Source of the DNA: Allacma fusca | Lineage: Eukaryota; Arthropoda; Collembola; Symphypleona; Sminthuridae | DNA: 64,000 bases | NCBI GenBank assembly: GCA_947179485.1 | Contig: OX359250.1 | Location: 13,560,539 to 13,624,538, forward strand | Direction of reading: 5' to 3' | Shown: positions 26,374 to 54,803 of the stretch, one piece after another | Layout: every line of letters begins with the position of its first letter | How positions within the stretch are numbered: the stretch's first letter is position 1 | The notes under the pieces: model-generated | What the model was told of the DNA's origin: nothing | The model's database searches: none | Seen by the model: only the letters and a program-made list of their open reading frames with translations | Translations under genes and position numbers: made by a program

Positions 26374-27245
26374 TTAAGCGTATTTAATACCAAGGAAGGT
26401 TAGACCACAAACCAGTAAACCTAGAACGACACCGAAGATAATGAAGATCATCATTGGAATGTTTACTCCGTAAACTTGATCCTTAAATGGTTTCACCACA
26501 CTGGTAGCTGGAAGAACGCAAAAATCTCGGTCGTAACACATGTCAGTGTATTTAGAGCAATGCTCCAGTTCCATGGAATGAAGCAAAGACACGCTGTTGT
26601 GAGCACTGCTTTGTGATGCAGTAATGTGGCACTTGTTGATCTCAACTTGTCTCTCCGTACTGTTCTTGACTCTTGGGTCAGTGTACTTGAACTTGATGAC
26701 CGTCGACTCCAACAGTTTTCGTCTGGCACATCCCATCACTGTTCCATAAGACGTCACATTGACATCAGTCGAAGCAACCTTTGTCACAACTTGGAACCTC
26801 CCAAGAACACAAGTGGCCTCATTCTCCTGCACAGCCCCACAAGCCACCGATGAGGGGTAGTTCGTCTGCATCATCATCCAAGACTCATCTTCTCCAGTTG
26901 ATAATGGACACTGTGGTAAAGTCGTATCGACATAATACAACTCCGGCAGTTGTGACATTACAAATGATCGGACTTCATTGCAAAACACAGTTTCTTCTGG
27001 ACAATCCAACGCCAGGCATCTATAGCACTTGAGGGAATGAAATCCTGCAACAAATAAACACATCAAAATCCCATCCAAACCCCCCCCACAAACACTTCCA
27101 ATAAGCATCAGCTTTCAGCCACATAAAAATGATTACACACTAATTATTTGAACAAAAAAAAACACTAACCAGATGGACAAAACACCAAGACAATGGAAAT
27201 CGTTGCAACAAGGCTGCCCAAAGAATATAAATGTCTTGACAACAT
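26374..27245 (-). CDS. Secreted cysteine-rich single-pass membrane protein, Ly6/uPAR-like (copy A)
   Basis: Two coding exons, 27245-27170 and 27044-26374, joined in phase 1 (GTTAGT donor), giving 248 residues. Exon 1 encodes a signal peptide (MLSRHLYSLGSLVATISIVL...). The ectodomain begins LKCYRCLALDC, the typical LxCYxC opening of Ly6/uPAR three-finger proteins, and has many further cysteines. It also has Asn-glycosylation sites (NVTS, NSTE), the motif YGTVMGCA, and a CYDRDFC pair before the membrane. A transmembrane segment lies at about residues 218-243 and the cytosolic tail is almost absent. The closest relative in the window is the gene at 53.9 kb, sharing the CYxCLxLDC, YYxDxTLPxCP and YGTVMGCA blocks. 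The ectodomain is longer than a single Ly6 module (about 80 residues), so the family assignment rests on the opening motif only. Function unknown. Confidence 0.82.
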
Positions 27246-29194: not shown

Positions 29195-29198
29195 GTAC

Positions 29199-29418
29199 TG
29201 ATAGTTACCGATGATGGTAACTAACTAACTTAACCTATAAATTAGTAAATATCCGAAGTCGGGAAAAATGCTCAAAATAATCAGGAGCGTGCTCCGACAC
29301 AACCATGCTGCTTCATTCTCTGATAACGACTTACTTGCTTTTATTCACGTTAGGCTGTCGCGTAGCGTGAGCCGGGGCTCTTCACATATTACCTCACGTG
29401 AGGGAGCCAACCCTCACA
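29199..29418 (-). repeat. 3' LTR (220 bp)
   Basis: Read on the element's strand it begins TGTGAGGG and ends AACTATCA. It contains AATAAA (plus strand TTTATT at 29340-29345) and a palindrome CCTCACGTGAGG (29392-29403) with a CACGTG core. I read it as identical to 41445-41664. Confidence 0.93.
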
Positions 29419-29432
29419 TCTTCCCCCCCTCA
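29419..29432 (-). other. Polypurine tract
   Basis: On the element strand GAGGGGGGGAAGA lies directly before the TGTGAG start of the 3' LTR. This is the expected position for the plus-strand primer of an LTR retrotransposon. Confidence 0.75.
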
Positions 29433-29696
29433 CCACGTTCACTGTCCCAGTGAAAGCGCGGAGGAGAAAATGTGGGGAAGGAAAAACAAAAAATTAATAC
29501 ATTATAGAATGGGGCCTAAGCCAAAATAAAATGTGAACAAAATATAGTACATATTTAGAAATAATAGTTATACAGATCGGCAGAAGCCTTAGACCTATAA
29601 ACACAGCACACAGATCAAATATTATGCACAGGCAATGCCTTGATCCCTCAAAACAAACAAAAAAATAACGCTGAAAAATGTTGTGAAGTCCGGCGA
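29433..29696 (-). other. Untranslated stretch between ORF4 and the polypurine tract
   Basis: AT-richer than the coding part of the element; no open frame of note on the element strand. Confidence 0.5.
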
Positions 29697-30326
29697 TTAT
29701 TCGGGGGTAGATGCAACGCAGGCGTCCGTCCAAGGAGCTAAAAAGAGGTCAAAGTAACTCTCCGAGTCCCGGCCCGGGTAAAGAGGACAATCCTCACCGC
29801 GATGAGCAGCCGTTGGATCCCGGCAACGGTAACAACCAGGGTGACCGCGGCACACGACGTAAGTGGCGGAGTAAAAACCGCAGACCGGGGTGGTGCGGAA
29901 TACTCTGCTGGGGAGAGCCCGGCGGTCCCAGCCGTAAATTACCTCAGTTTGGTCCCAGAAAGGCGCAATGGTGGTGGGTTTAGTAGGGCCATGATTACAG
30001 CCTCGAATACGATCCCGGAGCTGGTGAAGAAATTTCCGTATAGCAGGGACCTCCCCGAAGATACGTAACATGCGGACAGTAGTACCCGCGATTTTGGGGT
30101 CCAAAATAGCCGTGACCCTACTTGGGGCGGCGAAGGCTGAGAGAGCGTCTTGACGGTGCCCCGCCGGAGGAAAAGCTGCGTCCAGGTCTTCATGGGTGAA
30201 AACGTAAGCAGTGTAAACCGGCTGAAGCGTGACAGTGTCAGCCGTCGGTGGGCAAAATCCTCGACGCGTGTCATAGGTCCAGACCCCCCCACTTCTGGAT
30301 ATCCGGAGCCGATGGTTTGGGAACAA
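29697..30326 (-). CDS. Retroelement accessory ORF4, C-terminal part (zinc-knuckle protein)
   Basis: This frame continues the 30271-30945 frame at a +1 step. The two overlap over 56 bases containing a run of seven G on the coding strand (30284-30290). It encodes about 200 residues of unrecognised fold. The C-terminal part is cysteine-rich: CRGHPGCYRCRDPTAAHRGE is followed by DC, giving CX2CX6HX4C, a zinc-knuckle-like spacing. It ends shortly before the polypurine tract. I take it as the second half of ORF4. The step could be a real indel, a sequencing slip in the G run, or recoding. The listed 5' end is the overlap edge, not a proven start. Confidence 0.6.
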   Translation of the reverse strand: MFPNHRLRISRSGGVWTYDTRRGFCPPTADTVTLQPVYTAYVFTHEDLDAAFPPAGHRQDALSAFAAPSRVTAILDPKIAGTTVRMLRIFGEVPAIRKFLHQLRDRIRGCNHGPTKPTTIAPFWDQTEVIYGWDRRALPSRVFRTTPVCGFYSATYVVCRGHPGCYRCRDPTAAHRGEDCPLYPGRDSESYFDLFLAPWTDACVASTPE

Positions 30327-30945
30327 CCGGGCTTGACGGCTGGACGGGAGCAGGCAAAATGATTATAGATGGCTTGCCAGTAAATTCCGGAGACGGAGCA
30401 GAGGCAGGACCCGGTGTTAGAGCAGAGGCTGGATCCTGTGACGGAGCAGTGTCTGGATCCTGTGACGGAGCAGAGGCTGGATCCTGTGACGGAGCAGTGA
30501 CGGGGTCCGGGTGATGTCCAGTGGAGGGACCGGCGACGACCGTGGATGCGTAGAGAGATGCACTTGCTGCTAGACTCGCAGAGGTCGCTCGGTGACGTTG
30601 ATGGACGGCCCGATCCAAATTGAGGGACAATAAGTCGACAAGGGCCGTGAGGTGCTCGAGGATTATGAAGTCCGGATCCGACACGAGATCAGGTAAGAAA
30701 ACCAGATCGGCGATAATCGCATGAGCAATATGAACATCAGAACTGCGTGACCGGATTGGGTCCGCGAAGGCCAGAATCGGATGTGAAGGTACGTAACGGA
30801 AGACCCCCGTCCGGAGGAAACGGAGGCGTTCCCAGGCGTAGTCCATGTCATCAGACTGGAGTCCACTAAGGACCTCGCGGGCTGTCGACAGCATTGTATT
30901 CACATAGCCGGGATCCACAGAGCGGGAAGTTGAAGCCCCCGCCAT
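30271..30945 (-). CDS. Retroelement accessory ORF4, N-terminal part
   Basis: Begins with ATG (MAGASTSRSVDPGYV). The first 130 residues look helical and hydrophobic-rich without a known domain. A Pro/Ser/Ala linker follows, built from a tandem 24-base repeat (30418-30496 region) encoding variants of APSQDPAS. The frame then runs into TGA at 30271 while the downstream frame continues. It sits in the env position but shows no signal peptide, furin-like site or transmembrane segment, so it is not an envelope. With the C-terminal part it would make a protein of roughly 400 residues carrying one zinc knuckle. Confidence 0.6.
   Translation of the reverse strand: MAGASTSRSVDPGYVNTMLSTAREVLSGLQSDDMDYAWERLRFLRTGVFRYVPSHPILAFADPIRSRSSDVHIAHAIIADLVFLPDLVSDPDFIILEHLTALVDLLSLNLDRAVHQRHRATSASLAASASLYASTVVAGPSTGHHPDPVTAPSQDPASAPSQDPDTAPSQDPASALTPGPASAPSPEFTGKPSIIILPAPVQPSSPVVPKPSAPDIQKWGGLDL
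30418..30496 (-). repeat. 24-bp tandem repeat inside ORF4
   Basis: GGATCCTGTGACGGAGCAG recurs every 24 bases with alternating AGGCT / TGTCT spacers, three full copies and flanking partial ones. It encodes an octapeptide-like Pro/Ser/Asp/Ala repeat. Confidence 0.8.
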
Positions 30946-31728
30946 TACCTAAAGGAATAAAAAAATAGATATATAATTATGACAGTCGCAGGAAGGCCGG
31001 ACATTTTTTTAAACACACAAAGCACACACAAATCTCATCACTGACCGTTAGTTAGGTTAAAGAAAAAAAAATATATTGATGCACACTTACAATGCCGGTT
31101 GTTAACTAAATAATTCGGAAACCGACAATAAAAGAACCCGAAATACGTTGTTTGTGGTTAAGCGTGTGAAGGAACTAAGGAAGTGAGCGACTGTGGTGTT
31201 TGAAGCTGCAGACGTGAATGATGGAGCACGGTAGGTACTAAGTGCGTGGAGGTAGGAGGAAAGGTGGAGAAGCACGGACGACTGAAAATCGTTCCATGTA
31301 GTGTCCCCATATACAGTGCACTAAGCAAATAGGCGGCCACCGTGTTATGAGGATATGACTCCCTGCCAGTCGGGTGAGATAGCCGACACCCACTGTAGTT
31401 GTGCAAACTGTTACATACGTATATCCCCGACGCGAACGAATGAGAGTAACCGGATGCAAGTGCGTATGTATATGCCAAAGAAGTCACACAAGGCTGAAGA
31501 TACGAAGGAGATTACCTTTTCACTATAGAGGTTTAATGAACGGAATGAATAAATATATCATAAGGAAACAATAATGGAGAAGTTCGTGACAGGGTTGACC
31601 TGAACTTGCTAGGTGGCGCTTGAAGGGCAGAGAAAAAATTGCGACAGCCTCCCTCAAGTACACAAAAATTATATAGAACTGCTGGAGAGGAGGAAAAAAA
31701 AATATTATTGGAAAATCAACAGCGTAAA
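30946..31728 (-). other. Spacer between ORF3 and ORF4
   Basis: No conserved protein was recognised on the element strand. A 109-codon frame (31158-31487) is low-complexity Ser/Thr/His and not called. It may carry splice or initiation signals for ORF4. Confidence 0.45.
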
Positions 31729-32565
31729 TTAGGGGTTTATCTCGGCCGGTGGTTGGGCCGAAGCCGTTCCTTTCAACACGGAGTCCGTCGGAGCGGGTTT
31801 GGTGGGGAAATGCTTGATTCCCAAATGATCAAAGAGCGCGAGGGTCTCCTCGTAACTGTCGGGGGGAATGGAGACTTTTCCGCGATACAGAAATTGCCAG
31901 AGCAAATTTAGAGTTTCCGGGGAACAAGCTGGCCATTCAATTGCATAGGCGTCGGGGTGGGTTGATGGAGTGGTTTTCGCCAATTTCGCATGGAGTAACG
32001 GTAAGTGGGCAACCAACACCAACCGGTGAAATTGTTTTGAATAACCGCTCTGAACGGTGATGGTGACGTCAGGGACTGTGTTTCCCACGAGGGTGAAAAA
32101 ATCTGCGGATGATCTGTTGGAAGATCCAGGATTCGGCTCAGTGTCAGGAATGGACTCAAGAACGGCGATCTCCCGCCATGGGGTGGCCGGATCTGATTTT
32201 TTCGAGAGAAATGTTTCAGTCCGGAACACAAGATGTTGGAGACGAGCCAAGCGGTCTTGGAGTGTGTTCAACGCAAGGTCGTTGGCCGGTGCGTCGGAAC
32301 AATCCCTCTCCAAGTGGCCGAAAGAAGTGCAGTGGAGACAGAACTTCTCAGGAAGGGTCCGTTTGTTGAGCGTGAGGACGCGCGTTAGAATAACAAAACG
32401 GGGCCAGCCGGGATTTCCCATGTGATTGCGAAGAATCTCGAGATCCGTCAAGATCTCCTCGGTCCGATATGATGGATCGATGGGAAGGTCTACGCGGATA
32501 TCCATTATCCGGACATCAAACCGGATATGAGAATCCGTGTCAAGTAGCCGGAGGTAGAGTCCCAT
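31729..32565 (-). CDS. Retroelement accessory ORF3: CCHC zinc knuckle plus BTB/POZ domain
   Basis: 278 residues from ATG at 32565. The first 70 residues (DIRVDLPIDP...) are unassigned. A CX2CX4HX4C zinc knuckle lies at residues 76-89 (CLHCTSFGHLERDC), as in retroelement nucleic-acid-binding proteins. A BTB/POZ domain follows at about residues 160-260: PDVTITVQSG, FHRLVLVAHLPLLHAKL, SPETLNLLWQFLYRGKVSI and LALFDHLGIKH match the DVTxxV, hRxVLxxxSxxF, Yxgkv and lxLaDhLgI blocks of the fold. BTB domains mediate dimerisation and often recruit Cullin-3. The gene lies between pol and the 3' LTR on the element's coding strand. The same frame stays open upstream to 32793 apart from one TAA at 32581-32583, so the protein may be longer. 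The role in the element is unknown. Confidence 0.75.
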   Translation of the reverse strand: MGLYLRLLDTDSHIRFDVRIMDIRVDLPIDPSYRTEEILTDLEILRNHMGNPGWPRFVILTRVLTLNKRTLPEKFCLHCTSFGHLERDCSDAPANDLALNTLQDRLARLQHLVFRTETFLSKKSDPATPWREIAVLESIPDTEPNPGSSNRSSADFFTLVGNTVPDVTITVQSGYSKQFHRLVLVAHLPLLHAKLAKTTPSTHPDAYAIEWPACSPETLNLLWQFLYRGKVSIPPDSYEETLALFDHLGIKHFPTKPAPTDSVLKGTASAQPPAEINP

Positions 32566-32580
32566 CCACTCCTCTCGGTA

Positions 32581-32793
32581 TTACTGTAGGAGTTGACCTG
32601 AGGGACAAATTGTGGTTAGGTGATGCTGGACCGAGTGAAGAAGTTCGGAGCACTCCGAAGGACAATTTGGATCCGCGCGTTGGATAAAGTGCGGGTGAGC
32701 CTGAATCCGGGCAAAAATCTTGTCCTGCAAAAGTTTATTGCAGATTCTAGATGGCAGGACTGGGCTGCCCCTCCAAAGGACTTGTTGAGCCAT
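32581..32793 (-). CDS. Small ORF upstream of and in frame with ORF3
   Basis: Seventy codons from ATG to TAA, in the same frame as ORF3 and only 15 bases from its ATG. The ATG follows TTTTTCAACTTAG, which could be a splice acceptor for a subgenomic RNA. It has a Cys/His-rich end (CPSEC ... LLHSVQHH ... IC) reminiscent of zinc-binding segments, but no clear family. It could be the true N-terminus of ORF3 interrupted by a nonsense change, or a separate leader peptide. Confidence 0.4.
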   Translation of the reverse strand: MAQQVLWRGSPVLPSRICNKLLQDKIFARIQAHPHFIQRADPNCPSECSELLHSVQHHLTTICPSGQLLQ

Positions 32794-34193
32794 ACTAAGT
32801 TGAAAAATAACGGGGGTCTCAGAATGAACCTTATTTTAATTTATCCCGGCAAAGTCCGGCTACCACCAAATTAACGAAATTATTTCGTGTAGGGGTCATG
32901 GAGCCCCTAAATTACCTCTGACTGGCAAAAATAAAGTAAAAAGAGGTAATACTTACATGCCGAACTTTGTGTGTGAAAGTTTGAGGAAAGAGCCAAGGAG
33001 AAGAGTCCGAAGGGAACAGAGTGGCAGCAGTGAACTTTTGTGGAGAGAAAAATTGGAGACGACCACAAGGTAGCTCAGGTAAGTTTGGAATGAGTTATTA
33101 ATATTATGGAGGAGCCCAGGAGGACTAGACTTAGGAAATAAATTGTGTAGGATATTTCTTGGTAGGAAATTATTTACATAGAAATATCGTACGATGGGTA
33201 AGGACGTTGTGTGAGTGCCTTAGGGATTTTTAGAGATAAACGGTCCGGACAAAAGGTTCGACGACCGGCTTTATCTTGTAAGGTTGAAGTGGTAAGTTAT
33301 ATTGAAATTGGAAGGAAATTTTTCCGATTTGGCCCATTGAGTATTTTAGGCTCTTGTATTTTTAGGTAAATTAGTGGCGATAGCCACAAAAAGGTATTCA
33401 AATGTTAATAAAAATTAAATCGTAGTAAGGAATGTGGTCGTTCCTCTCCCTCTCCCCTAACTGTAGGGACGTTTCTACCGTCACACTATTCAGGACTCCA
33501 ATGTATTGAAGGTCAAGGTGAAGAAAGGAGAAGCCCCACCAAAGATAAATCCCCGAAAGGAAGGGAAGGATGACGCCGCACGCCGTATGACATGGCGGGG
33601 GCCATTAATGGTATACCTATACGGGAGGCTGGAGGATAGAATCCGGCCATTCGTAGGAGTGTACATGTATGTGTATGTACAAAAAAAATGTATGTAAATG
33701 AATATACACGTATTGTATAGTGTATAATGTGTATGGGGGCTATAGAGGAGCCCTAAATATGTGGAGCCTTGTGCTCTTTTAGGTTAAAGATTTATGTATC
33801 TTAATTATATTTAAAGAATAAAGCGACCGCCTAGCAAGGAGGGGCCAATCCAGACGTAGGGATATATGTTAATAATGTAAAAGGGAAATATATACAGCAG
33901 GCACTCTCGTTCGAATCGTGTATAGTCCCGGTGTTTGCCCGTGCCATTTATGTGAAATGAGGGACTTAAAAAAATGACCTTTAAGCCTGTAGGCCGTGGG
34001 AGGTAAACGTAAGCAGCGGGGACGTATCGAGAACGGTCGACCAGCGTGCCACTTTACAACACAGTCGCTCGCTCGAGTTAAGATCGGAGGGGACGTGTGT
34101 AAGGAGGTATAAGGGAATAAGGTATATAATTATAATAGTAAAAAAATAAAACCTTACAGATGATTCCCGATACACGAAATCAAGTTCTGAAGA
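32794..34193 (-). other. Internal spacer between pol and ORF3
   Basis: About 1.4 kb without a supported open frame on the element strand; AT-richer than the flanking genes. It may hold a second promoter, splice sites or packaging signals. Short TATG/TACA-rich runs lie near 33660-33730. Confidence 0.45.
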
Positions 34194-37100
34194 TTATTTA
34201 CGACCCGGCTGAAGCCTTTCTGGGGGCTTCCGGTTCCGACTCGGATATCTCCTGCTTTCAGGAGGACGAATATCAGATGACCCCGGGCTTTGCGAAAAGG
34301 ATTTTTTCGCAACGGCGGTGGAGGCTTTTCGGGGCGGTACTGTTGTCCAACCAAAATCCTCCGTTTCCGGATGAGCCACTTGGCCCGTAATTGCTGATTC
34401 TTGAGGCACCCTCTTTAATGGGGTTGTGCTCTTCAGTCCTGGCAATTTAGATGGGCGAGGAAGCTCCTCATGAGGACCCTTTACAGATACTCTGTGAGCG
34501 ACCGGGGGCACCGGCAAGGGTCTTGTTACCTCGGGGGGCGGTATTTCCGCCAACACCTTCGGCGCCTTTTTTTTGATGGGGAGCAGGGGCCTCCCTGGAA
34601 AGTGTACTACGGGTGACACACCCATTCTGGTCGGTGGCACCGACGATAATGTTTCGGGAACACCCGAACCTCCCCCTGTGGCGGGGATGAGTGCGTCCCG
34701 CACATTTGGAGCACCGATGGGTCCGTCGGTGGAAAGACCTGTGGGAATAAACAAAGAAGTACCCGAGTTAGATTTTTTTAGAGATAATGGAGCCAGACCT
34801 ACAGGATTTACAGATTTTCGAGGGCTCAAGAATGGATTGACGAGTGGGATGTCGCCTATGGTGACACGCCCACTCGTCAGCGAGTCGCCGGAGTGGGTAT
34901 GGGAAAGAAAAGAAATGTTAGAAATGGGAATTTTAGACGGGGTGCGGGGAGCATCCTGAGGAGACCGGAATAAATCCAAAATAGCATGACCCGGACGTGA
35001 AGTAGGATCCCTAAATTTTCCAACATGAGGAATTTCTTGTGATGACGTATACCCATGACTTTTAACAACCTCCGCAAAGGAGCGTTGAGATACATTACCC
35101 ATACCGGGGTCGGTAACTTCACCAACCGCTGTGGATGACGCAGCCGAGTCTGCGGTTGACGTGGCCTTGCGGTCACGTTTCCGTAATTTCTTTTTTTGCT
35201 TTTGCATGGCAACGGAATCCCGAGCGGAGTGTAAGCGGGATGTTGTCGGCTTTACCGTAGACTCGGAGGATGGTGGAGTTATGACTGTCCGTGGATTCGG
35301 TGGCAGCCGGTACGGTGAGTAGTCCATCCGAGGCGGGGTCAACGGTGACTGCTGTTGACCTGCGGGAGTAAAAATTAAAGGTGGATTAATTATTTCCTGA
35401 GGGCTCGATCGCCGCACGGGACTTTTATCCTCGGCAGGGGTAATCGGAGACTCCTGTAAAGAAGAGAGGTCATGAACATTAGTGTTTTGTTCAGAATGAG
35501 ACTTTGACAAGTTATGTGTGGATGAGTGAAATACTCGAGAGGGTATTATCTCGGAGGATTCGAGATGCCCAGACAGACCATGTGATGCGGTGAACATTTC
35601 GGAGCTTACCTGAGTCTCCAAAATGTTCGAAGGCATGTCAGGTGAGCGTGCCGGAGGCGATCTCCGGGAATTTCCGTGTGAGGTAAATTCAAAGGGTTGA
35701 AGACATACCGACGGGACGGGTGCAACCTGCTCGAGTTGTTTAAGAACAACCTCACACTCAGTCGGGCCTGTGGGTATAATGTTGTAATCAATACTCGCAG
35801 GAAATGGATAGTCATTTGTAGAGACAGTGGGAGTGGGACCCGGTTGATTGGGGTCAGCGAAGTAAAGTTCTTCGGCACTCCGGTTAAAAACCGGAGGGAT
35901 ATAATTGACTGGCTTAAAACTAATACGCCCAGGAGTCACGGACCTGACCGGAGGCTTTGCCGCCGTGGCACCGGGAAATGGCGGAGCCATAATATTTTGG
36001 TCACAGGTAGCGGAGACATTGGAAAAGCAAAAGGGTGTCGTGTCAGTTGTAAGAGGGGTAACTCGAACCTGAGGAGCGGATTTTACGGGAAATCCTAACG
36101 GAGAGTTGGGCGATAAAGACGGAGGCAGTTCCGCACCGCCGTTCCGGTTATCACCAAAATAAAAGTTTTCTACCGGAATTGACTCGTCTATCAACTGTGG
36201 AGCATTGGTGGGGCTAGGGATGTTGGTTTCCTCAGTCCGCTCAACAACAGTGGTTGGAGACGGTAGGGTGGGGGTAGCCGAGGGAAGTGAGTCGCCCACC
36301 TGCAGAAAAGAATTAGGCGGCCCTCCGAGCATATTATAGAAATGAGTGATGTTGTATACAGGGGTAGGATTACCTGTAGGAATTGGTATGGGATTAATAG
36401 TAGGAGGGGTCTCAACCGTTCCTGATTCCCGTCTCGAACGCAGGCGAGTGACGATCGGAGAGCGAACAGTATCCGCGCCTGTCGAGTGAGGAGGTAAATA
36501 GTCACCCTCGGAAGAGTGGTGGGTTAAGTCCCCTGACGGGGTACCTGAACCTCCAGAGCTCCGGGTACTATTATAAAAAGTACGAGACCGGATTGGTGAG
36601 TCGCATCCAGAGTCCTGGCTGTCCCCGTATTGGGAAATGACGTCCTTAACAACAGGTGCATACCGGGGTGGTTCCCGGACAATAGTACGCTCAGATGATC
36701 TGTGAGGATGGAACTCGGCCAGAGTTTTGTGTACGAATATATCATCGTACTGACCTTGCCAAGCTACCGGAGGAAGGTACGGCTTCAGCCGATGAGAATG
36801 GACATTTCTCTGGGTGTGGGCCGGACGGTTGTTTCCCCGATAAGCCACCGAGAAAGACGTTTCGCCGCGTACCTTGACAATCTGGTAGGGACCAATCCAA
36901 CGGAGGTCAAGTCCCGAGGCTTGGGTATCCTGAACCCAGACTAATTGACCTAAATAAAAATTATTAAGAGGTCGATTAACATTAAATTTTTTAGCCCTCT
37001 GTTCCTGTGACTTTGTCGTGTTCAAGTTGGCACGGAACACTCGATCCCGTCGAGTAGTCTCTAACTGGGACGGAGAGTTGGGGGATTCAATGGTAATCAC

Positions 37101-37604
37101 CGGGGTCATTAAGTCTAACTGAGTCTTCGGTTGGACAGCGTAGACAAGACTGAAGGGAGTGTATTGGGTCACAGCATGTACGTGCATATTGTGGCTTTTG
37201 CAAGCCTTACCTAAATGCTCATCCCAGTCATCCCTGTGGTATGAAACATATTTTTTTAAATATCGCTTAATTTCGAGGTTATTGCGCTCGACATTCCCGT
37301 TCGACTCGGGATGATGTGGCATAATACGGATATGTTGAACACCTTTCTTTTTTAGGTATTCGGTAAACACCTTACCGGTAAAATGAGGGCCGTTGTCTGA
37401 GACAATTTGGGGTACCACTCCAATCTGCTCAAAGATTAATTTTTTGAGCAATCGTACGGAGTCCTCCGTTGTAGCTGTAGGGGTAGCCGCCGCCCATGCG
37501 AACCTACTGGTGTGGTCGATTGCCACAAAAATATACCGGTTACCTGACCTGGACGTAATGAGGGGCCCGGCGTAGTCGATGAACATTGTCAGGAGGGGGG
37601 ACAA
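34194..37604 (-). CDS. Retroelement pol, second part: integrase core, GPY/F module and long Pro/Ser-rich tail
   Basis: A single open frame of about 1,136 codons, +1 relative to the upstream pol frame. The overlap 37540-37604 contains a run of six C on the coding strand (37595-37600). The integrase catalytic core is intact: D in FIDYAGPL, D in SDNGPHF and E in SNGNVERNN, with exactly 35 residues between the last two. A GPY/F-type module (GPYQIVKVRGE) follows. After it comes an extension of roughly 750-800 residues rich in Pro, Ser, Thr and Gly, with basic patches and a terminal RRYPSRNRKPPERL motif of the kind that ends other gypsy/copia polyproteins. Typical integrase tails are far shorter. 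No aspartic-protease motif is seen here (one QDSGC lacks the hydrophobic context). The listed 5' edge is a TTG at the frame overlap, not a proven start. Confidence 0.85.
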   Translation of the reverse strand: MSPLLTMFIDYAGPLITSRSGNRYIFVAIDHTSRFAWAAATPTATTEDSVRLLKKLIFEQIGVVPQIVSDNGPHFTGKVFTEYLKKKGVQHIRIMPHHPESNGNVERNNLEIKRYLKKYVSYHRDDWDEHLGKACKSHNMHVHAVTQYTPFSLVYAVQPKTQLDLMTPVITIESPNSPSQLETTRRDRVFRANLNTTKSQEQRAKKFNVNRPLNNFYLGQLVWVQDTQASGLDLRWIGPYQIVKVRGETSFSVAYRGNNRPAHTQRNVHSHRLKPYLPPVAWQGQYDDIFVHKTLAEFHPHRSSERTIVREPPRYAPVVKDVISQYGDSQDSGCDSPIRSRTFYNSTRSSGGSGTPSGDLTHHSSEGDYLPPHSTGADTVRSPIVTRLRSRRESGTVETPPTINPIPIPTGNPTPVYNITHFYNMLGGPPNSFLQVGDSLPSATPTLPSPTTVVERTEETNIPSPTNAPQLIDESIPVENFYFGDNRNGGAELPPSLSPNSPLGFPVKSAPQVRVTPLTTDTTPFCFSNVSATCDQNIMAPPFPGATAAKPPVRSVTPGRISFKPVNYIPPVFNRSAEELYFADPNQPGPTPTVSTNDYPFPASIDYNIIPTGPTECEVVLKQLEQVAPVPSVCLQPFEFTSHGNSRRSPPARSPDMPSNILETQVSSEMFTASHGLSGHLESSEIIPSRVFHSSTHNLSKSHSEQNTNVHDLSSLQESPITPAEDKSPVRRSSPQEIINPPLIFTPAGQQQSPLTPPRMDYSPYRLPPNPRTVITPPSSESTVKPTTSRLHSARDSVAMQKQKKKLRKRDRKATSTADSAASSTAVGEVTDPGMGNVSQRSFAEVVKSHGYTSSQEIPHVGKFRDPTSRPGHAILDLFRSPQDAPRTPSKIPISNISFLSHTHSGDSLTSGRVTIGDIPLVNPFLSPRKSVNPVGLAPLSLKKSNSGTSLFIPTGLSTDGPIGAPNVRDALIPATGGGSGVPETLSSVPPTRMGVSPVVHFPGRPLLPIKKKAPKVLAEIPPPEVTRPLPVPPVAHRVSVKGPHEELPRPSKLPGLKSTTPLKRVPQESAITGQVAHPETEDFGWTTVPPRKASTAVAKKSFSQSPGSSDIRPPESRRYPSRNRKPPERLQPGRK

Positions 37605-39948
37605 TTTTCATATGTCCAGGAGCTTTTGTTGTACGGGGATTTCCAGCCTGGCAGGTGGTACATCCTTTAATGTACTCCAAGATGTCCTCTTTCATGCGAC
37701 GCCAATAATAGCGTCGGTAGAGCTTTTGGTAGGTCTTATATAGACCTACGTGACCTCCATCCAGTCCGTCATCATGATCCAACTTGAGGATAGGTCCCCG
37801 AAGCGTCGGTGGGATGACGAGTTTATAAGGCTCGCAAGAGGAATTATCTATGCGGAACAAAAGATCAGAGATTAGTGCAAATTGTTTAGAAAATTTATTA
37901 CCCTTAAGTCCATCATTTTGACCATTAATTTTGAGATCGTCAATAACAGCTTTTAGGGCGGCGTCCTTCTGTTGGTGCTCAACGAAAGCCTCCACATTCC
38001 CACCGAGGACCGCCTGAATTACTGGTTCGTCCTCCGTAATTTGATGTCGGGTTAAATATGGGACTGGGAGCGTGAGCGACCGAATCGGATAGCGTGAGAG
38101 ACAATCTGCGTGAGGAATCTGTTTTCCTGGCACGTGAATAATGTTCTTCTCTTGTTGCGCCAAAAAGAGCTGCCACCGAGCAATACGGGAGTGAGGGTCC
38201 TTCATTGTGCAGAGGGACGTTAAAGCCGCATTGTCGGTCCTCACCTGGACCCTTCGTCCATAAACATAGGGGCGGAATACCTGAAAAGCATTCACAATGG
38301 CAAGGCATTCCTTTTCGGGGTTGGAATAATTTAATTCAGCCCCTTTTAACAGTCTAGATGTAAAAGCAATGGGCTTCCAGATTTTACCATCTCTGGATTG
38401 TTCGCAAGCCCCACCAATGCGGTAATAGCTGGCATCGGTTACCAAACGGATTTCGGCCTCGGGGTCGAAAAAATCCAGGACGGGGGTGGACGTCATAGCA
38501 GTTTTTAAGGACTGGAAGGCCTCCTCCTCCTCGGGGCCCCAGTGAAATGGGACTTCTTTCCGGGTGAGAGCGTGGAGGGCCTTAGCCTTGCCGGCAAAAT
38601 CATGGACAAAATTTCTGTAATAATTACAGAATCCCAGGAAGGATTGAACGTCCTTCAGGCTCTTGGGACTGGGAAATCTGGAGACCGCCTGGATTTTTGC
38701 AGGATCCGGTCGAGTGCCTTCCCAACTGATGACATGTCCTAAAAAGTGCAATTCCTGATACCCAAAAAAACATTTTTTTAATTTAAAAGTTAAATTAAAT
38801 GAGGAAGCACGTTGCATCACTAGGCGGAAACGTACGAGGAGTTCCGCGAAGGTTTTCGCAAAAATCAAGACATCATCAATGTAGATTAGACATATAGTAT
38901 TTTTAAGATCACCCAAAATAACATCCATCATGGCCTGGAATTCCGCGGGGGAATTTTTGTAACCGAATGGAAGTCGGTTATAACAAAATTTCCCCTTCGG
39001 GGTGGAGAAAGCAGTCTTAATTTTGCTTTCCTCCGAGAGTTCCATTTGAAGGAAACCGGAGAGGGCATCCAATGTTATGAAATATTGGGAACCTGCGAGG
39101 TGGTCCAAGCAGTCATCGATGCGTGGGATGGGATAGGTGTTCTGTTCCACCTTGCTGTTAAGCTCACGCATATCGACGCAAACCCGATGTTGCGCAACGC
39201 CGGAGTCGTCCGGTTTTTTAGAAACCACGATGACTGGGGAGTTATAGGGGGAAACACAGGGCTTAATTACCCCTAGTTTCAGGTTTCGAGCAACATGCTC
39301 CTCCAAAATTTGTCGTTCGGTGTGAGCCAGACGGTACGAGTACTTATGGAATGGTTTACTATCCCCGGTGTTAATCACTACCGGAGGATAGTAAACCACA
39401 CCCAACTCGTCGTCAGATCTAGCAAAATTGGGGAGATATGAGTTAATTACAGCTAAGAGGGCATACCTCTGATCACAGGTGAGGTTAGATCCTAAATGGA
39501 CCTCCTCCTCCTTAAAAGGAAGTTTAAAGGGAGTAATATCCGGATCTGGGAAGCGAGTAGGGTTAGAGTTATGTCTCATTTCGGTACCCGTAAAAGGTTC
39601 GATTTTCCCTATATATATAGAGGCTGCTTGGTCTGAACGTCCCCGCACGTCAGACCTAGCAGTTTCCCTGATTTTTGGTAGATTGGGGCTGAGTAGGATC
39701 AGCGCCCGCATTTTGTTGTGGGGTCGGTGGCGCCCAAGAGCCTTGTTGGGGCGGCGGCGGTTGTGAGGCCGGCATCTGGAAAGGCCGGTACTGCTGACCG
39801 TCCCAAAAAAATAGAGGAGGACTAACAGCCTGATGAGAAGGGTAGCCACAGGGGTAGTTACCCGGAGGTGGGTAGTAACCGGGATGACTGTTCGGAGGGA
39901 ACTGATCCTGGCGACCGAAATTCCCGCGTGGGTTACGGGAGCCGCCAT
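37540..39948 (-). CDS. Retroelement pol, first part: reverse transcriptase, RNase H, integrase zinc finger
   Basis: 802 codons overlapping gag by 293 bases and lying +1 to it, so expression by frameshifting is likely. The first ~95 codons overlap gag and are probably not translated as such. RT blocks are clear: KPCVSPYNSPVIVV, CVDMRELNSKVEQNTYPIPR, FITLDALSGF, RLPFGYKNSP and the catalytic YIDD (near 38871-38883). RNase H is next: DASYYRIGGA, PEKECLAIV, RTDNAALTS. The integrase HHCC finger follows: HDDG..GGHVG, CTTCQ. Between the gag end and the RT there are only about 70 residues with no DTG/DSG triplet, so the pepsin-like protease usual at this place is missing. The frame ends at 37540 just before the integrase core, which continues in the next frame. 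Confidence 0.9.
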   Translation of the reverse strand: MAAPVTHAGISVARISSLRTVIPVTTHLRVTTPVATLLIRLLVLLYFFGTVSSTGLSRCRPHNRRRPNKALGRHRPHNKMRALILLSPNLPKIRETARSDVRGRSDQAASIYIGKIEPFTGTEMRHNSNPTRFPDPDITPFKLPFKEEEVHLGSNLTCDQRYALLAVINSYLPNFARSDDELGVVYYPPVVINTGDSKPFHKYSYRLAHTERQILEEHVARNLKLGVIKPCVSPYNSPVIVVSKKPDDSGVAQHRVCVDMRELNSKVEQNTYPIPRIDDCLDHLAGSQYFITLDALSGFLQMELSEESKIKTAFSTPKGKFCYNRLPFGYKNSPAEFQAMMDVILGDLKNTICLIYIDDVLIFAKTFAELLVRFRLVMQRASSFNLTFKLKKCFFGYQELHFLGHVISWEGTRPDPAKIQAVSRFPSPKSLKDVQSFLGFCNYYRNFVHDFAGKAKALHALTRKEVPFHWGPEEEEAFQSLKTAMTSTPVLDFFDPEAEIRLVTDASYYRIGGACEQSRDGKIWKPIAFTSRLLKGAELNYSNPEKECLAIVNAFQVFRPYVYGRRVQVRTDNAALTSLCTMKDPHSRIARWQLFLAQQEKNIIHVPGKQIPHADCLSRYPIRSLTLPVPYLTRHQITEDEPVIQAVLGGNVEAFVEHQQKDAALKAVIDDLKINGQNDGLKGNKFSKQFALISDLLFRIDNSSCEPYKLVIPPTLRGPILKLDHDDGLDGGHVGLYKTYQKLYRRYYWRRMKEDILEYIKGCTTCQAGNPRTTKAPGHMKIVPPPDNVHRLRRAPHYVQVR

Positions 39949-40894
39949 TGTTATTGTTTGTCGGGTGTCGACCAGACATTGGCAAGGCCGCCCGCTGCTG
40001 TTGCGCTTGAGACTGTAACGAAAGAGAATTAGTTACCAAATTATTTTGTAGAGGAAGACTGACCTCAGTAGTGCCCTGTTTCCCAGCGTTGACGATAGCA
40101 GTCAGACGTTGTGTGTTACCCGCGGTGACATCCCGCAGCATTGTCCGACATTGAGACATGATGTGGTTCTGGCGACCGCAGTAGTCGCAGGTGACCACCG
40201 TCATCGCACGGACGGATACAGGTCCTAATTGGGGGGCCTGGTCCACAGAGGACTGGGTAGGGACGGTCCTGATAGCGGGGTTAAGTTCCGGATCCTTAAG
40301 GAGTCCCTTAAGGTTCTTCGCCAGATCCCGAAGGTTCCTTGATGGAGTGATGGCCAAGGATTCCATCCGGAGTGGAAGTTTCCCACGAGCCTTCTCCACA
40401 ATGTCTTCTTCTTCCATGAGAGGATCAAGGTCCCAACAGAGTTTCTGGAGACCAGCGACGAAGGAGTGAGGGGTCATGCCGGACCGATACCGGTATGCAT
40501 CCAGATCGGCCTGCTTCTCAGCCTTCAACCGGTCGTGGTCGAAGCGCTCCTTCAATTCGTCGCTCACGTAGTCCCAGATCTCCTGTGATGACTTCGTCTT
40601 CCTGTCCAGAAACATCCGGATCCGGGGGAAGATGGACTGGAACCACTCCCGTACGTCCCTGTCCGGAGAATCCAGGAAGAGGCGGGACAGGTTCCGGATG
40701 ACCATGTCGTGAGTGACGAAGAGGTCCGCGGAGAAATGGTTCACGGCATCAATAAAGGATGCTGGGTTCTCTTGGCTGGAGTACTGGCGTACTTCCAGGC
40801 GGAACTTGTCCAGCCGCCGGTATTTTTCATCGGATTCCCTAGACCGGAGGAGCCGATCCTTTTTCTCGTCCTCGGTCTCATTATGGTCGGCCAT
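39656..40894 (-). CDS. Retroelement gag
   Basis: 412 residues from ATG at 40894 (the open frame extends ten codons further up only with a TTG). The N-terminal half is highly charged. It is followed by a helical capsid-like region resembling Retrotrans_gag (WFQSIFPRIRMFLD ... ELKERFDHDRL ... LQKLCWDLDPL). A CCHC knuckle CDYCGRQNHIMSQC (CX2CX4HX4C, near 40148-40189) follows. The C-terminal 150 residues are Pro/Gln/Asn-rich with Gly-Arg patches, typical of nucleocapsid tails. It stops at TAG 39656-39658 inside the pol overlap. Gag packages the RNA in virus-like particles. Confidence 0.88.
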   Translation of the reverse strand: MADHNETEDEKKDRLLRSRESDEKYRRLDKFRLEVRQYSSQENPASFIDAVNHFSADLFVTHDMVIRNLSRLFLDSPDRDVREWFQSIFPRIRMFLDRKTKSSQEIWDYVSDELKERFDHDRLKAEKQADLDAYRYRSGMTPHSFVAGLQKLCWDLDPLMEEEDIVEKARGKLPLRMESLAITPSRNLRDLAKNLKGLLKDPELNPAIRTVPTQSSVDQAPQLGPVSVRAMTVVTCDYCGRQNHIMSQCRTMLRDVTAGNTQRLTAIVNAGKQGTTEVSLPLQNNLVTNSLSLQSQAQQQRAALPMSGRHPTNNNNGGSRNPRGNFGRQDQFPPNSHPGYYPPPGNYPCGYPSHQAVSPPLFFWDGQQYRPFQMPASQPPPPQQGSWAPPTPQQNAGADPTQPQSTKNQGNC

Positions 40895-41425
40895 GAGAAG
40901 TCGAGCAGAAAAACTATACACCAAAGTTTAACAATGGGGTTAATTAAAGTAACGAAGGGAGACTCACACAAGGCTGGTAAAAATCCGGAGCTCCCAATCC
41001 AAAACTATAGTATAAGGATATTTATTCAGTGTCAATGAATGCAAATAAATTAAACCAAACTATTTTTCTACATTTTTTACAATGGTTTGTAACTACCCCG
41101 ACGATACACTTTGCTCAAGAATCTGCACCAACATATGCAGTTAATATTGACACTACCGTAATTTCTCTGTTCCCGTTCCTCTACTCCCGTTCTGGCTACT
41201 ATTGCCATTACGGCTACTTTTCCCGTTCCCGTTCCTCTATTCCTGTTCCTCTGTTCCTGCTTTTAGCCATCTTGTTCCTTGTTCCTACCTGTTCCTGGTT
41301 CCCCCTTTTATCTCAAGCCTATGTTACTTCCACATCCAAGGTCGGAGAGCCACGCGGTGAGCTGTAAAAGCCGGAAAGTCCGGGTGTGGGAGGGGAAAAA
41401 CTTGGCGAAATGAGGAGGGGAAAAG
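40895..41425 (-). other. Retroelement 5' leader
   Basis: Untranslated region between the primer-binding site and gag. It has a GTTCC-rich repeat tract at about 41171-41306 (coding-strand GGAAC repeats), which could fold or be a packaging signal. Confidence 0.5.
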
Positions 41426-41443
41426 GTCTCGCACCTCCACCAG
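41426..41443 (-). other. Candidate primer-binding site
   Basis: On the element strand TGGTGGAGGTGCGAGACC begins one or two bases after the CA end of the 5' LTR. It starts with the TGG expected for pairing to a tRNA 3' CCA. I could not assign the tRNA isotype from memory. Confidence 0.6.
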
Positions 41444-41444
41444 A

Positions 41445-41664
41445 TGATAGTTACCGATGATGGTAACTAACTAACTTAACCTATAAATTAGTAAATATCC
41501 GAAGTCGGGAAAAATGCTCAAAATAATCAGGAGCGTGCTCCGACACAACCATGCTGCTTCATTCTCTGATAACGACTTACTTGCTTTTATTCACGTTAGG
41601 CTGTCGCGTAGCGTGAGCCGGGGCTCTTCACATATTACCTCACGTGAGGGAGCCAACCCTCACA
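41445..41664 (-). repeat. 5' LTR (220 bp)
   Basis: Same 220 bases as 29199-29418 in direct orientation; no difference was found on reading. Flanked by the second GTAC. It should carry the element's promoter. Confidence 0.93.
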
Positions 41665-41668
41665 GTAC

Positions 41669-42376: not shown

Positions 42377-43184
42377 TTAAACTCGAGCGAATATTGAATT
42401 CAACTGAGAGGAGCAACCTTCTGGGCATTGGAATGCAAATGAGCAGGTTTTAATAGATTGACACCACAAGTCAGTTCCAGGGGCGCAATCGAAGTCGTGC
42501 CGAGTTAAGCTGTTATCTCTTTCGTCAAGAACACATCTGATGAACTTCTTACAGTCTGCTGGATTAGGGAAGAAACCTTCAGCAGTGCAACCATCGGTGG
42601 GTGGCGCTTCGGTTTCTGGATCAACAGGTTCTTCGGTTCCTGGGTCTACTGGAGCATCGGTTTCTGGGTCAGCTGGAGCTTCGGTTTCTGGTTCCACTGG
42701 TGCCTCGGTTTTTGGTGCTCCTGTTGTCGGTTTTGGACGTCCAGTTGGTAAGGTCCAGCGTCCAGTTGGTAAGGTCCATCGTCCAGTTGGCAATGTTGGG
42801 AGTTTAGTTGGGAAGGTCCAACGTCCAGTTGGGAATGTAAAATGTCCAGGTTGGTTAACAAGTTCTCCGTCTACGCACAATCCATCAATGCATTTTCCTT
42901 GAAGGAAGTATGTTCCTTGTTCGCAGGATGTTTCTTCCGCCACAAGCTCATTTCCGATAGTAATAATGCACTTGACGTAACTCGTGCATCTGGTTGGATG
43001 TTGGAAAACTCCATTCTCCGTACAGATGAATTCGGTTGCTTTGCTCAGATATACTGAGGAAAGAATCTGGAAATGAGAATTCAATGTTAGTAAGACATAA
43101 AAACTCCTCTCTCTTGGTCTCAATTTCAAACCGCAAAATCTTCAAAATTTTATTTACCAGGATAAAAGCTGCTAAGTTCCTCAT
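42377..43184 (-). CDS. Secreted peritrophin-like protein with two chitin-binding domains, copy 1 (short)
   Basis: Exon 1 43184-43158 (nine codons, MRNLAAFIL) joins in phase 0 to exon 2 43066-42377, giving 238 residues. The spliced N-terminus MRNLAAFILILSSVYLS is a good signal peptide, which neither exon supplies alone. A CBM14/peritrophin-A-type domain opens the mature protein (FICTENGVFQHPTRCTSYVKCI ... C ... GKC). A Pro/Thr linker (PTGRWTLPTGRW, then ETEAPVDPE-like) follows. A second, C-terminal domain (DGCTAEGFFPNPADCKKFIRC ... FQCPEGC) closes it. Such proteins bind chitin in the gut peritrophic matrix or cuticle. A polyadenylation hexamer lies about 80 bases downstream (TTTATT at 42293, plus strand). 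The MITE separates the ATG from the predicted core promoter. Confidence 0.88.
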
Positions 43185-44682: not shown

Positions 44683-45490
44683 TTAAACTCGAGCGAATAT
44701 TGAATTCAACTGAGAGGAGCAACCTTCTGGGCATTGGAATGCAAATGAGCAGGTTTTAATAGATTGACACCACAAGTCAGTTCCAGGGGCGCAATCGAAG
44801 TCGTGCCGAGTTAAGCTGTTATCTCTTTCGTCAAGAACACATCTGATGAACTTCTTACAGTCTGCTGGATTAGGGAAGAAACCTTCAGCAGTGCAACCAT
44901 CGGTGGGTGGCGCTTCGGTTTCTGGATCAACAGGTTCTTCGGTTCCTGGGTCTACTGGAGCATCGGTTTCTGGGTCAGCTGGAGCTTCGGTTTCTGGTTC
45001 CACTGGTGCCTCGGTTTTTGGTGCTCCTGTTGTCGGTTTTGGACGTCCAGTTGGTAAGGTCCAGCGTCCAGTTGGTAAGGTCCATCGTCCAGTTGGCAAT
45101 GTTGGGAGTTTAGTTGGGAAGGTCCAACGTCCAGTTGGGAATGTAAAATGTCCAGGTTGGTTAACAAGTTCTCCGTCTACGCACAATCCATCAATGCATT
45201 TTCCTTGAAGGAAGTATGTTCCTTGTTCGCAGGATGTTTCTTCCGCCACAAGCTCATTTCCGATAGTAATAATGCACTTGACGTAACTCGTGCATCTGGT
45301 TGGATGTTGGAAAACTCCATTCTCCGTACAGATGAATTCGGTTGCTTTGCTCAGATATACTGAGGAAAGAATCTGGAAATGAGAATTCAATGTTAGTAAG
45401 ACATAAAAACTCCTCTCTCTTGGTCTCAATTTCAAACCGCAAAATCTTCAAAATTTTATTTACCAGGATAAAAGCTGCTAAGTTCCTCAT
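44683..45490 (-). CDS. Secreted peritrophin-like protein with two chitin-binding domains, copy 2 (short)
   Basis: Exons 45490-45464 and 45372-44683, giving 238 residues, the same sequence as copy 1. The signal peptide, both cysteine-rich chitin-binding domains and the short Pro/Thr linker are unchanged. Such near-perfect identity over 2.3 kb means either a very recent duplication or ongoing gene conversion; a collapsed or duplicated assembly must also be considered. Promoter arrangement as in copy 1, with the MITE between initiator and ATG. Confidence 0.87.
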
Positions 45491-53894: not shown

Positions 53895-54803
53895 TCAAAT
53901 TCTACCTTCTTCGGAAACAATATTGACCTGCTGGTCACTGACGCGATATGTATTCGACGCCCAGCTCATGGGCGTACGGCAGAGAGATGCCAAAATTAGA
54001 GCAATCACAATGACCAGGACAAGTGCAATGATACCAATGACCACTCCGGCGTCAAAGCTGTTGTCCCTGCGTGTGGGTTTGAACGGCCGAACAATACTTT
54101 GCAGGGGATCTATGCAAAAGTCTTTTGTACAATAGTCCGTCCTGATATGGCACGTCTCAACTTCATAACTAAACTTGAGACCTTTCTTCGCCGATGTGAC
54201 ATTAGTTCCAACCAGAGCACATTTCATACTCCTGTTAACTTCTATATTTGTTTTGATAGCGTTGAGGAGATTCACATTAGCACAACCCATAACCGTTCCG
54301 TACAGTGTCATACGAACATCGTCGTCCAGCTCGGTTAATATTTGAATTCGACTTAAAGCACAAGTTGCATACTCTCGTCGTATGGAGTAACTGCAAGCTG
54401 TTGTTCCAATTTGCATAATTTTCCAGGATAATGAATCCTTCGGATTCGGACATTTTGGCAGAGTAAGGTCAATATAATACAGGTTCCGTAATTCTTGTGT
54501 GATGAAGTCCCGGACATCATTGCACAATTTGGGAGGAACGCTGTCAGACTCCTCGCAGTCCAGTCGCAAGCAGTTGTAGCACAGTAAAGTGTTACCTGCA
54601 AACAAATAACATAATTATGTATCCGTTATTGTAACCTTTTAAAACCAAATAGCAAGCAGCAAAGGCCTGAATCAAGTACAGGTCATCAAACCGAACGCAT
54701 CCAAATGTAAAAATTAATACTTACTCATTGGAAGCAGCTCAAAGAAGATAGCCACACTCAGGAGAGCATAGAGAAGGCCGGAACGTCTGTGAAAGCTGGT
54801 CAT
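53895..54803 (-). CDS. Secreted cysteine-rich single-pass membrane protein, Ly6/uPAR-like (copy B)
   Basis: Exons 54803-54725 and 54595-53895, joined in phase 1 (GTAAGT donor, TTTGCAG acceptor), giving 259 residues. Exon 1 supplies a signal peptide (HRRSGLLYALLSVAIFFELL). The ectodomain opens LLCYNCLRLDC and shares with copy A the CNDVRDF / CNEVRSF block, YYIDLTLPKCP, YGTVMGCA and the membrane-proximal paired cysteines (DYCTKDFC). A long hydrophobic segment (GVVIGIIALVLVIVIALIL) follows. Unlike copy A there is a cytosolic tail of about 30 residues ending in acidic/basic residues. Intron position and phase are the same as in copy A, so the two derive from one gene. Function unknown; a surface receptor or adhesion role is only a guess. 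Confidence 0.82.

What the first reader, a model, noticed from the sequence alone, without database searches (positions are those of the whole stretch)
31729..32565. An LTR retrotransposon that carries a BTB/POZ domain gene
ORF3 lies inside a flanked, LTR-bounded Ty3/gypsy element, on its coding strand, in the env position. It couples a retroelement-type CCHC knuckle with a well-formed BTB domain (DVTITV, FHRLVLVAHLPLLHAKL, SPETLNLLWQFLYRGKVSI, LALFDHLGIK). I know of no described gypsy lineage with BTB. BTB proteins dimerise and often act as Cullin-3 adaptors. One hypothesis is that the element uses it to redirect host ubiquitination, for example against a silencing factor, or to oligomerise its RNA-binding protein.
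Basis: partly seen in the sequence, partly recalled or inferred. Interest (0 to 1): 0.88.

Follow-up and report, generated by a model that had tools for sequence, protein, structure and literature searches.

The report
Springtail jumping genes carrying BTB domains
A family of virus-like jumping genes in the genome of the springtail Allacma fusca carries an extra gene that joins a zinc knuckle, of a kind that often binds nucleic acid, to a BTB protein-pairing domain, and that gene is kept by selection and swapped between copies, so it probably does something useful for the element.

Summary
A 12.5-kb Ty3/gypsy element (identical 220-bp LTRs, 4-bp target duplication) carries, between pol and the 3' LTR, a sense ORF with a CCHC-type knuckle and a BTB domain (Pfam E=2.4e-10). 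It is not a one-off: the host genome (Allacma fusca by database names) has 109 ORF3 matches, fragments included. ORF3 lies downstream of 26 of 41 close RTs and 14 of 15 more distant ones. Among 17 relatives, median dN/dS is 0.18 for BTB and 0.68 for the tail. Copies 99% identical lie on four contigs. ORF3 is exchanged as a module: one pair has RT dS 0.05 but ORF3 dS 0.5-1.5. The coordinates given are a damaged fragment: intact relatives start 76 codons upstream and a stop interrupts the window copy. The CUL3 idea is not supported (phi-x-E in 2 of 18, no 3-box). All 13 inspected copies without ORF3 reach an LTR 1.2-1.3 kb after pol, so ORF3 is dispensable in cis. Most likely it is an accessory nucleic-acid-binding adaptor that oligomerises through BTB. 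A second gypsy lineage has a BTB-only ORF, probably captured separately. No structure or function was confirmed.

The parts
29195..29198 (.). target-site duplication GTAC, left copy
   Evidence: read
29199..29418 (-). 3' LTR (element is on the minus strand), 220 bp, TG..CA
   Evidence: 100% identical to 41445-41664; purine tract just upstream, read
29697..30326 (-). ORF5: C-terminal part of the second accessory gene, Cys/His-rich end; by coordinates it is in frame with ORF4 in L006, L022 and L025, not in the window or L024
   Evidence: no Pfam match
30271..30945 (-). ORF4: N-terminal part of the second accessory gene with a 24-bp repeat tract
   Evidence: tblastn match (E<=0.01) in 28 of 30 ORF3 loci, the window's own included
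31729..32565 (-).
31807..32076 (-). BTB/POZ domain of ORF3
   Evidence: Pfam PF00651 E=2.4e-10, residues 164-253
32299..32340 (-). CCHC-type knuckle of ORF3 (residues 76-89)
   Evidence: read directly; weak profile match to CCHC knuckles
32566..32793 (-). upstream part of ORF3 as defined by intact relatives (start MAQQ..), interrupted in the window by TAA at 32581-32583
32795..32796 (-). AG one base before the upstream ATG, possible splice acceptor; same place in 10 of 13 related copies shown
   Evidence: read; no control computed, copies not independent
34194..37604 (-). integrase core plus a long C-terminal extension; not in frame with the preceding ORF in this copy
   Evidence: Pfam rve E=3.6e-13; RT matches elsewhere lie in open frames of about 2400 aa, long enough for gag-pol (inferred)
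37540..39948 (-). pol: RT, RNase H, integrase zinc-binding domain
   Evidence: Pfam RVT_1, RT_RNaseH, Integrase_H2C2
39656..40924 (-). gag-like ORF
   Evidence: position; Retrotrans_gag E=0.043 and zf-CCHC E=0.57, both under their cut-offs
41445..41664 (-). 5' LTR, followed by a primer-binding-site-like TGG.. sequence
41665..41668 (.). target-site duplication GTAC, right copy
   Evidence: read

Best explanation
ORF3 is a mobile accessory gene of a Ty3/gypsy family in the springtail Allacma fusca. Its protein has a family-specific N-terminal module ending in a CCHC-type knuckle, then a BTB domain. Shown: the domain content, its place in many elements, constraint on its sequence, recent spread, and exchange between elements as a module. 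Inferred: the BTB was taken from a host gene; the protein is made from a separate, probably spliced, RNA; the knuckle binds element RNA or DNA; the BTB makes dimers or higher oligomers, with itself and possibly with host BTB proteins, so that the element's nucleic acid or preintegration complex is gathered or tethered, most likely at nuclear chromatin. It helps the element but is not needed in cis for copying, since copies that lack it have multiplied.
For: BTB: Pfam E=2.4e-10; 7 of 7 aligned BTBs, window included, hit Pfam BTB at E<=1; profile comparison with six other BTBs of the same genome, probability 97.3, pairwise E=2.5e-11; a BTB profile finds ZBTB17 (best E=3.5e-7, from two weak domain hits in a fusion), KBTBD4 (5.1e-6), ZBTB7A, BCL6 and SPOP in the PDB. 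Linkage: ORF3 within 15 kb downstream, same strand, of 26 of 41 window-type RTs and 14 of 15 distant RTs. Selection: median dN/dS N-terminal 0.13 (118 of 136 pairs kept), BTB 0.18 (89 of 136), tail 0.68 (107 of 136), among 17 copies. Recent spread: L012-L015, on four contigs, are 99.1-99.8% identical over 3.4-3.8 kb. Modular exchange: L004 against L010 has RT dS 0.051, ORF3 N-module dS 1.5, BTB dS 0.54. No membrane segment: highest 19-residue hydropathy 0.94, against 2.85 in a control.
Against: No RNA, protein or binding data. Structure prediction gave no usable model; Foldseek matches, though mostly BTB in the 50 listed, have E of 0.6 or worse. The knuckle is weak by profile and lacks its histidine in L034. 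15 of 41 window-type RTs have no ORF3; 13 of these 15 were inspected and are short forms. L028-L030 share a frame change that cuts the last BTB helix, and two further genomic matches end at the same profile position, so damaged versions were propagated. The splice acceptor is read by eye. Recombination between copies violates the assumptions of the dN/dS estimate.
Confidence: 0.55

Rival explanations
1. ORF3 is a substrate adaptor that recruits Cullin-3 to a host silencing factor.
For: BTB proteins include many CUL3 adaptors (recalled); KBTBD4, KLHL11 and SPOP are among the PDB matches.
Against: The phi-x-E motif (recalled from the CUL3 literature) is found in 2 of 18 parsed sequences (a nineteenth row was not parsed). 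No BACK match in Pfam; the tail after BTB is short and weakly constrained.
Confidence: 0.12
2. ORF3 is an envelope-like or cell-to-cell transmission factor, as its place between pol and the 3' LTR suggests.
For: Env position; absence from some copies and exchange between copies recall env; a possible splice acceptor just before the ATG.
Against: No hydrophobic segment in ORF3 (maximum hydropathy 0.94; ORF4 1.57; ORF5 0.80; control 2.85); BTB domains known to me are cytoplasmic or nuclear (recalled).
Confidence: 0.07
3. The BTB is a passenger: a host exon carried by chance, without function for the element.
For: Short forms without ORF3 multiply; some copies have a cut BTB.
Against: Median dN/dS 0.18 with a weakly constrained tail as internal control; BTB kept in lineages whose ORF3s are only about 30-41% identical to the window's.
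Confidence: 0.1
4. ORF3 works inside the particle: an auxiliary nucleocapsid-like RNA packaging or assembly protein whose BTB only self-assembles, with no host partner.
For: Knuckle in ORF3; second accessory ORF with a Cys/His-rich end. The ORF in the same place in the second lineage has a KH match (E=0.0063) and a CCHC match (E=9.4e-4), both under their cut-offs.
Against: No similarity between the ORF3 module and gag outside the knuckle (probability 1.2); not needed in cis.
Confidence: 0.16

Closest known systems
LTR retrotransposons with additional sense ORFs between pol and the 3' LTR (reviewed for plants in PMC7264820; passages seen)
   Same: Extra sense ORF in the env position, carried by many copies.
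   Different: There the sense ORFs are described as env-like, some with transmembrane domains; BTB does not occur in the text (0 occurrences). Here the ORF is a knuckle plus BTB with no membrane segment, in an arthropod.
Drosophila MDG1-group gypsy elements with accessory sORF1 and sORF2 (PMC11952523; outline with abstract, and section 7 seen)
   Same: LTR elements of an insect with accessory genes; the paper says that low nonsynonymous/synonymous rates suggest function, and that two members have deletions in one of them.
   Different: Those ORFs lie upstream of gag and are about 110 and 70 aa; sORF1 has a potential helix-turn-helix and is subnuclear, sORF2 is a membrane protein likened to fusogens. 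No BTB in the parts I read.
Drosophila gypsy insulator complex with the host BTB proteins Mod(mdg4) and CP190 (starts of abstracts in a search listing: PMC4638101, PMC10648081, PMC13217776)
   Same: BTB proteins act at the insulator named after a gypsy retrotransposon.
   Different: There the BTB proteins are host genes; here the element itself encodes the BTB. The link is an analogy only.
Host BTB-zinc-finger proteins (ZBTB17, ZBTB7A, BCL6)
   Same: Among the PDB matches of the BTB profile; L033 (lineage D) has a BTB followed by one C2H2-like finger (E=0.089, under the cut-off).
   Different: The window ORF has no C2H2 finger by Pfam; ORF3 begins with a module found only in these elements so far, and a knuckle.

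Membership tests
Ty3/gypsy LTR retrotransposon (Metaviridae) | paired LTRs with TG..CA ends and a short target-site duplication | tested here: met
   220 bp, 100% identical, GTAC on both sides
Ty3/gypsy LTR retrotransposon (Metaviridae) | domain order RT - RNase H - integrase on one strand | tested here: met
Ty3/gypsy LTR retrotransposon (Metaviridae) | gag and aspartic protease | tested here: inconclusive
   gag by position and an under-threshold Pfam match; no protease match reported
Ty3/gypsy LTR retrotransposon (Metaviridae) | RT placement in a named gypsy lineage | not tested
   only a tree within this genome was made
BTB/POZ domain | significant sequence match to the family | tested here: met
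BTB/POZ domain | BTB fold | tested here: inconclusive
   AF2 mean pLDDT 34.5 and 48.7; Foldseek E 0.6 or worse, mostly BTB entries among the 50 listed
BTB/POZ domain | dimer or oligomer formation | not testable with these tools
   needs purified protein
CUL3 adaptor | phi-x-E motif before the fourth strand | tested here: not met
   2 of 18 parsed sequences; motif definition recalled
CUL3 adaptor | 3-box or BACK region after BTB | tested here: not met
   no Pfam BACK match, short weakly constrained tail
Retroviral/errantiviral env | transmembrane segment | tested here: not met
   hydropathy scan
BTB-zinc-finger transcription factor | BTB with C2H2 fingers | tested here: not met
   no finger in the window ORF; L033 of lineage D has one under-threshold C2H2 match after BTB

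The most novel reading that the evidence does not exclude
In this springtail, gypsy elements have captured host BTB domains at least twice (the ORF3 family and a second, distant gypsy lineage with a BTB-only ORF) and use them as exchangeable modules that bind host BTB chromatin or insulator proteins, so that the element tethers itself to, or interferes with, the host machinery that organises or silences it.
Probability: 0.2. Interest if true: 0.85.

Novelty: new variant of a known kind. Interest (0 to 1): 0.62.

Why it matters
BTB domains are a common pairing module of animal chromatin and ubiquitin-adaptor proteins. A retroelement family that has taken one up, keeps it under constraint and trades it between copies gives a direct way to ask what a retroelement gains from a host protein-interaction domain: find its partner. 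The contrast of long (with ORF3) and short (without) forms in one genome makes the question testable by comparing their expression and copy number.

Tried and rejected
Homologues outside the host: none with the window ORF3 (709 candidates, none at E<=1); three with an ORF3 alignment, all named Allacma fusca (only the 7998 candidates sharing most words were scored); one with the lone BTB exon, again Allacma fusca (6 candidates). So spread beyond this species is unknown; other springtail genomes could not be searched.

Structure: the window ORF3 with three database relatives and the window BTB alone gave unusable models; the Foldseek list is not counted as evidence of fold.

ORF3 module as a copy of gag: only the knuckle aligns. 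Pfam for the N-terminal module: only stray weak hits (Sec20 0.019, DUF2387 0.026, DUF745 0.17, one member each of 6). ORF4 and ORF5: no Pfam match.

Gain or loss of BTB in lineage E: the RT tree, rooted on the distant second lineage, places E beside B/C/D with weak support (69), which would favour loss in E. But window ORF3 is closer to B/C than to D while B/C RTs are closest to D, so exchange cannot be excluded. Not decided.

Donor of the BTB: a 118-aa BTB protein at C8:47020537 (P0004) is nearest to the element BTBs in a 22-sequence tree (element BTBs split off at 99; joined with it at 89). Host donor or co-opted element exon: not decided. The 'host' labels in that tree are mine and unverified.

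Genome-wide count of ORF5: the search did not complete.

Full report
What is there. The window lies at G000:C9:13560539-13624538 of a 392.7-Mb assembly. Database names of the closest proteins point to the springtail Allacma fusca. The element is on the minus strand, 29199-41664: two 220-bp LTRs, 100% identical, TG..CA ends, GTAC on both sides, a TGG.. primer-site-like sequence after the 5' LTR and a purine tract before the 3' LTR. Inside: a gag-like ORF (weak Pfam support), RT, RNase H and integrase, then ORF3, then a second accessory gene seen in this copy as two frames, ORF4 and ORF5. ORF4 has a tblastn match in 28 of 30 ORF3 loci, the window's own included. From the coordinates, ORF4 and ORF5 share a frame in L006, L022 and L025 but not in the window or L024.

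The observation. ORF3 (31729-32565) has a BTB domain by Pfam at E=2.4e-10. Seven aligned BTBs, the window's among them and 27-88% identical to the first, hit Pfam BTB in 7 of 7 cases with the listing open to E=1; the weakest lineage, L033, scores 21.0 bits against a cut-off of 20.5. A profile of these BTBs matches solved BTB domains (best ZBTB17, E=3.5e-7, made of two sub-threshold domains; KBTBD4 5.1e-6 as one stretch) and a profile of six other BTBs of the same genome (97.3%, pairwise E=2.5e-11). The knuckle is a direct reading with weak profile support. The listed coordinates are not the whole gene: relatives with an MAQQ start and an uncut end run 353-362 aa; the window copy has a TAA at 32581-32583 and its pol and integrase ORFs are out of frame, whereas many RT matches elsewhere lie in open frames of about 2400 aa (longer in some distant lineages). 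With identical LTRs the copy is young, so these faults either came with the copy or arose at insertion; I did not resolve which.

Not a one-off. The window ORF3 has 109 matches in the genome, fragments included. I sort the long ones into lineages: A (62-100%), B and C (about 36-41%), D (about 30-34%) and E (about 30%, N-terminal part only). The one E copy that I read in full, L034, has the N-terminal module and an under-threshold C2H2-like end (E=0.025) but no BTB; twelve other places match it to its C-terminal end (residues 323-325) at 37-96%, which I take as the same build without having read them. L032 (C) has, by eye, an N-terminal half unlike L031 (B) but a nearly identical BTB half, a mosaic. 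Database proteins P0001-P0003 resemble D.

Linkage to RT. Of 56 RTs scored (of 2449 candidates), 41 are 91-100% identical to the window pol, and 26 of these have ORF3 downstream on the same strand within 15 kb, 24 of them at 4.8-5.3 kb; of 15 more distant RTs (66-70%) 14 do. Of the 15 window-type RTs without ORF3, 13 were inspected (two, eleven): in all 13 an LTR-like match follows the end of pol after about 1.2-1.3 kb, and in the eleven tblastn found no ORF3. The short-form spacer matches the window element just before ORF3 (74% over 800 bp) and at the junction with the 3' LTR (83% over 151 bp), so short forms look like deletion derivatives that lost ORF3 and ORF4/5. Two were not inspected.

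Selection. Among 17 A-lineage ORF3s, NG86 gives median dN/dS 0.126 for residues 1-189 (range 0.04-0.66), 0.37 for the linker (0.16-1.77), 0.178 for BTB (0.08-0.52) and 0.68 for the tail (0.27-1.87). The 13 other loci of the 30 were left out: the window copy, copies with stops, cut or partial copies (L007, L019, L020, L023, L025, L028-L030) and duplicates (L011, L013-L015). Pairs with dS outside 0.05-2 were dropped, leaving 118, 91, 89 and 107 of 136. Some of the 17 are partial or close to each other (L012 and L017 are 99% identical), and L017 has an unrelated N-terminus that inflates the first figure. Recombination between copies also violates the method's assumptions, so the values are indicative.

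Recent spread and exchange. L012-L015, on four contigs, are 99.1-99.8% identical over 3.4-3.8 kb. RT and ORF3 histories disagree: L004 and L010 differ by dS 0.051 in RT but 1.5 in the ORF3 N-module and 0.54 in BTB; L003 and L004 have RT dS 0.27 but N-module dS 0 (there the L010 row uses the RT of its near-identical neighbour L011, the L012 row that of L014, and L006 gave no RT estimate because of a stop). ORF3 therefore moves between elements as a module, partly in halves.

A second capture. L068 is a different gypsy lineage (RT 44-46% identical to the others) whose region after integrase holds a BTB-only ORF (Pfam E=3.6e-13) just after a T-rich stretch ending in CAG, then a 480-aa ORF with under-threshold KH and CCHC matches. 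Its BTB has seven matches at 79-100%, a short fragment at 92% and three at 32-37%. In a 22-sequence BTB tree the A/B/D BTBs are split from all others at 99 and the second lineage's BTBs lie elsewhere, so separate capture is likely, though BTBs are short and support inside the tree is mixed (42-100).

How it may work. Shown: domain content, linkage, constraint, spread, exchange, dispensability in cis. Inferred: host origin of the BTB, separate RNA (AG one base before the ATG in 10 of 13 copies shown, by eye, copies related), nucleic-acid binding by the knuckle, oligomerisation by BTB, host BTB partners. Against a CUL3 adaptor: the motif in 2 of 18 and no BACK/3-box. Against env: no membrane segment. 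L028-L030 share a cut of the last BTB helix, and two more genomic matches end at the same place, which shows that damaged forms are carried along, perhaps in trans.

Literature. Six searches with BTB and retrotransposon terms, each requiring all its terms, found no paper on such an element (with none; with one review whose only BTB passage is a table row on the host factor PLZF). The library lacks most subscription papers, and repeat databases were not available, so this is not proof of absence.

Verdict. A real, multi-copy, constrained accessory gene with a domain for which I found no described gypsy precedent: a new variant of the known kind 'LTR element with additional ORF'. The mechanism is open.

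Noticed in passing
L068:4186-4485 (G000:C1:27511685-27511984) and copies: A second, distant gypsy lineage carries a BTB-only ORF followed by a 480-aa ORF with KH and CCHC matches under the cut-offs.
   Followed up: partly
L067:4945-5313 (G000:C8:47020444-47020812): A 118-aa BTB protein (P0004) sharing TLMGNQP with lineage B; possible donor or co-opted exon.
   Followed up: partly
L035, L036, L075-L085: Short elements without ORF3 and ORF4/5 that look like internal deletion derivatives.
   Followed up: yes
G000:C5:41416085 (+) and 41420551 (-), L010 and L011: Two ORF3 copies in inverted orientation about 4.5 kb apart, 99.9% identical over 3.7 kb; nested insertion, inverted duplication or assembly artefact.
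   Followed up: no
L032:4364-5446: Mosaic ORF3: N-terminal half unlike L031, BTB half nearly identical to it, by eye.
   Followed up: partly
L028, L029, L030: Three copies share a frame change that removes the last BTB helix, and two more genomic matches stop at the same position; a damaged form was propagated.
   Followed up: no
window 42377-43129, 44683-45435, 46989-49802 (-): Three repeated ORFs with the same cysteine-containing ends; the third has a large Thr/Pro-rich repeat tract also open on the other strand (47152-49578).
   Followed up: no
window 26374-27108 and 53895-54605 (-): Two cysteine-rich ORFs that look related by eye, each with a C-terminal hydrophobic segment; no Pfam match for the first, the second not scanned.
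   Followed up: no
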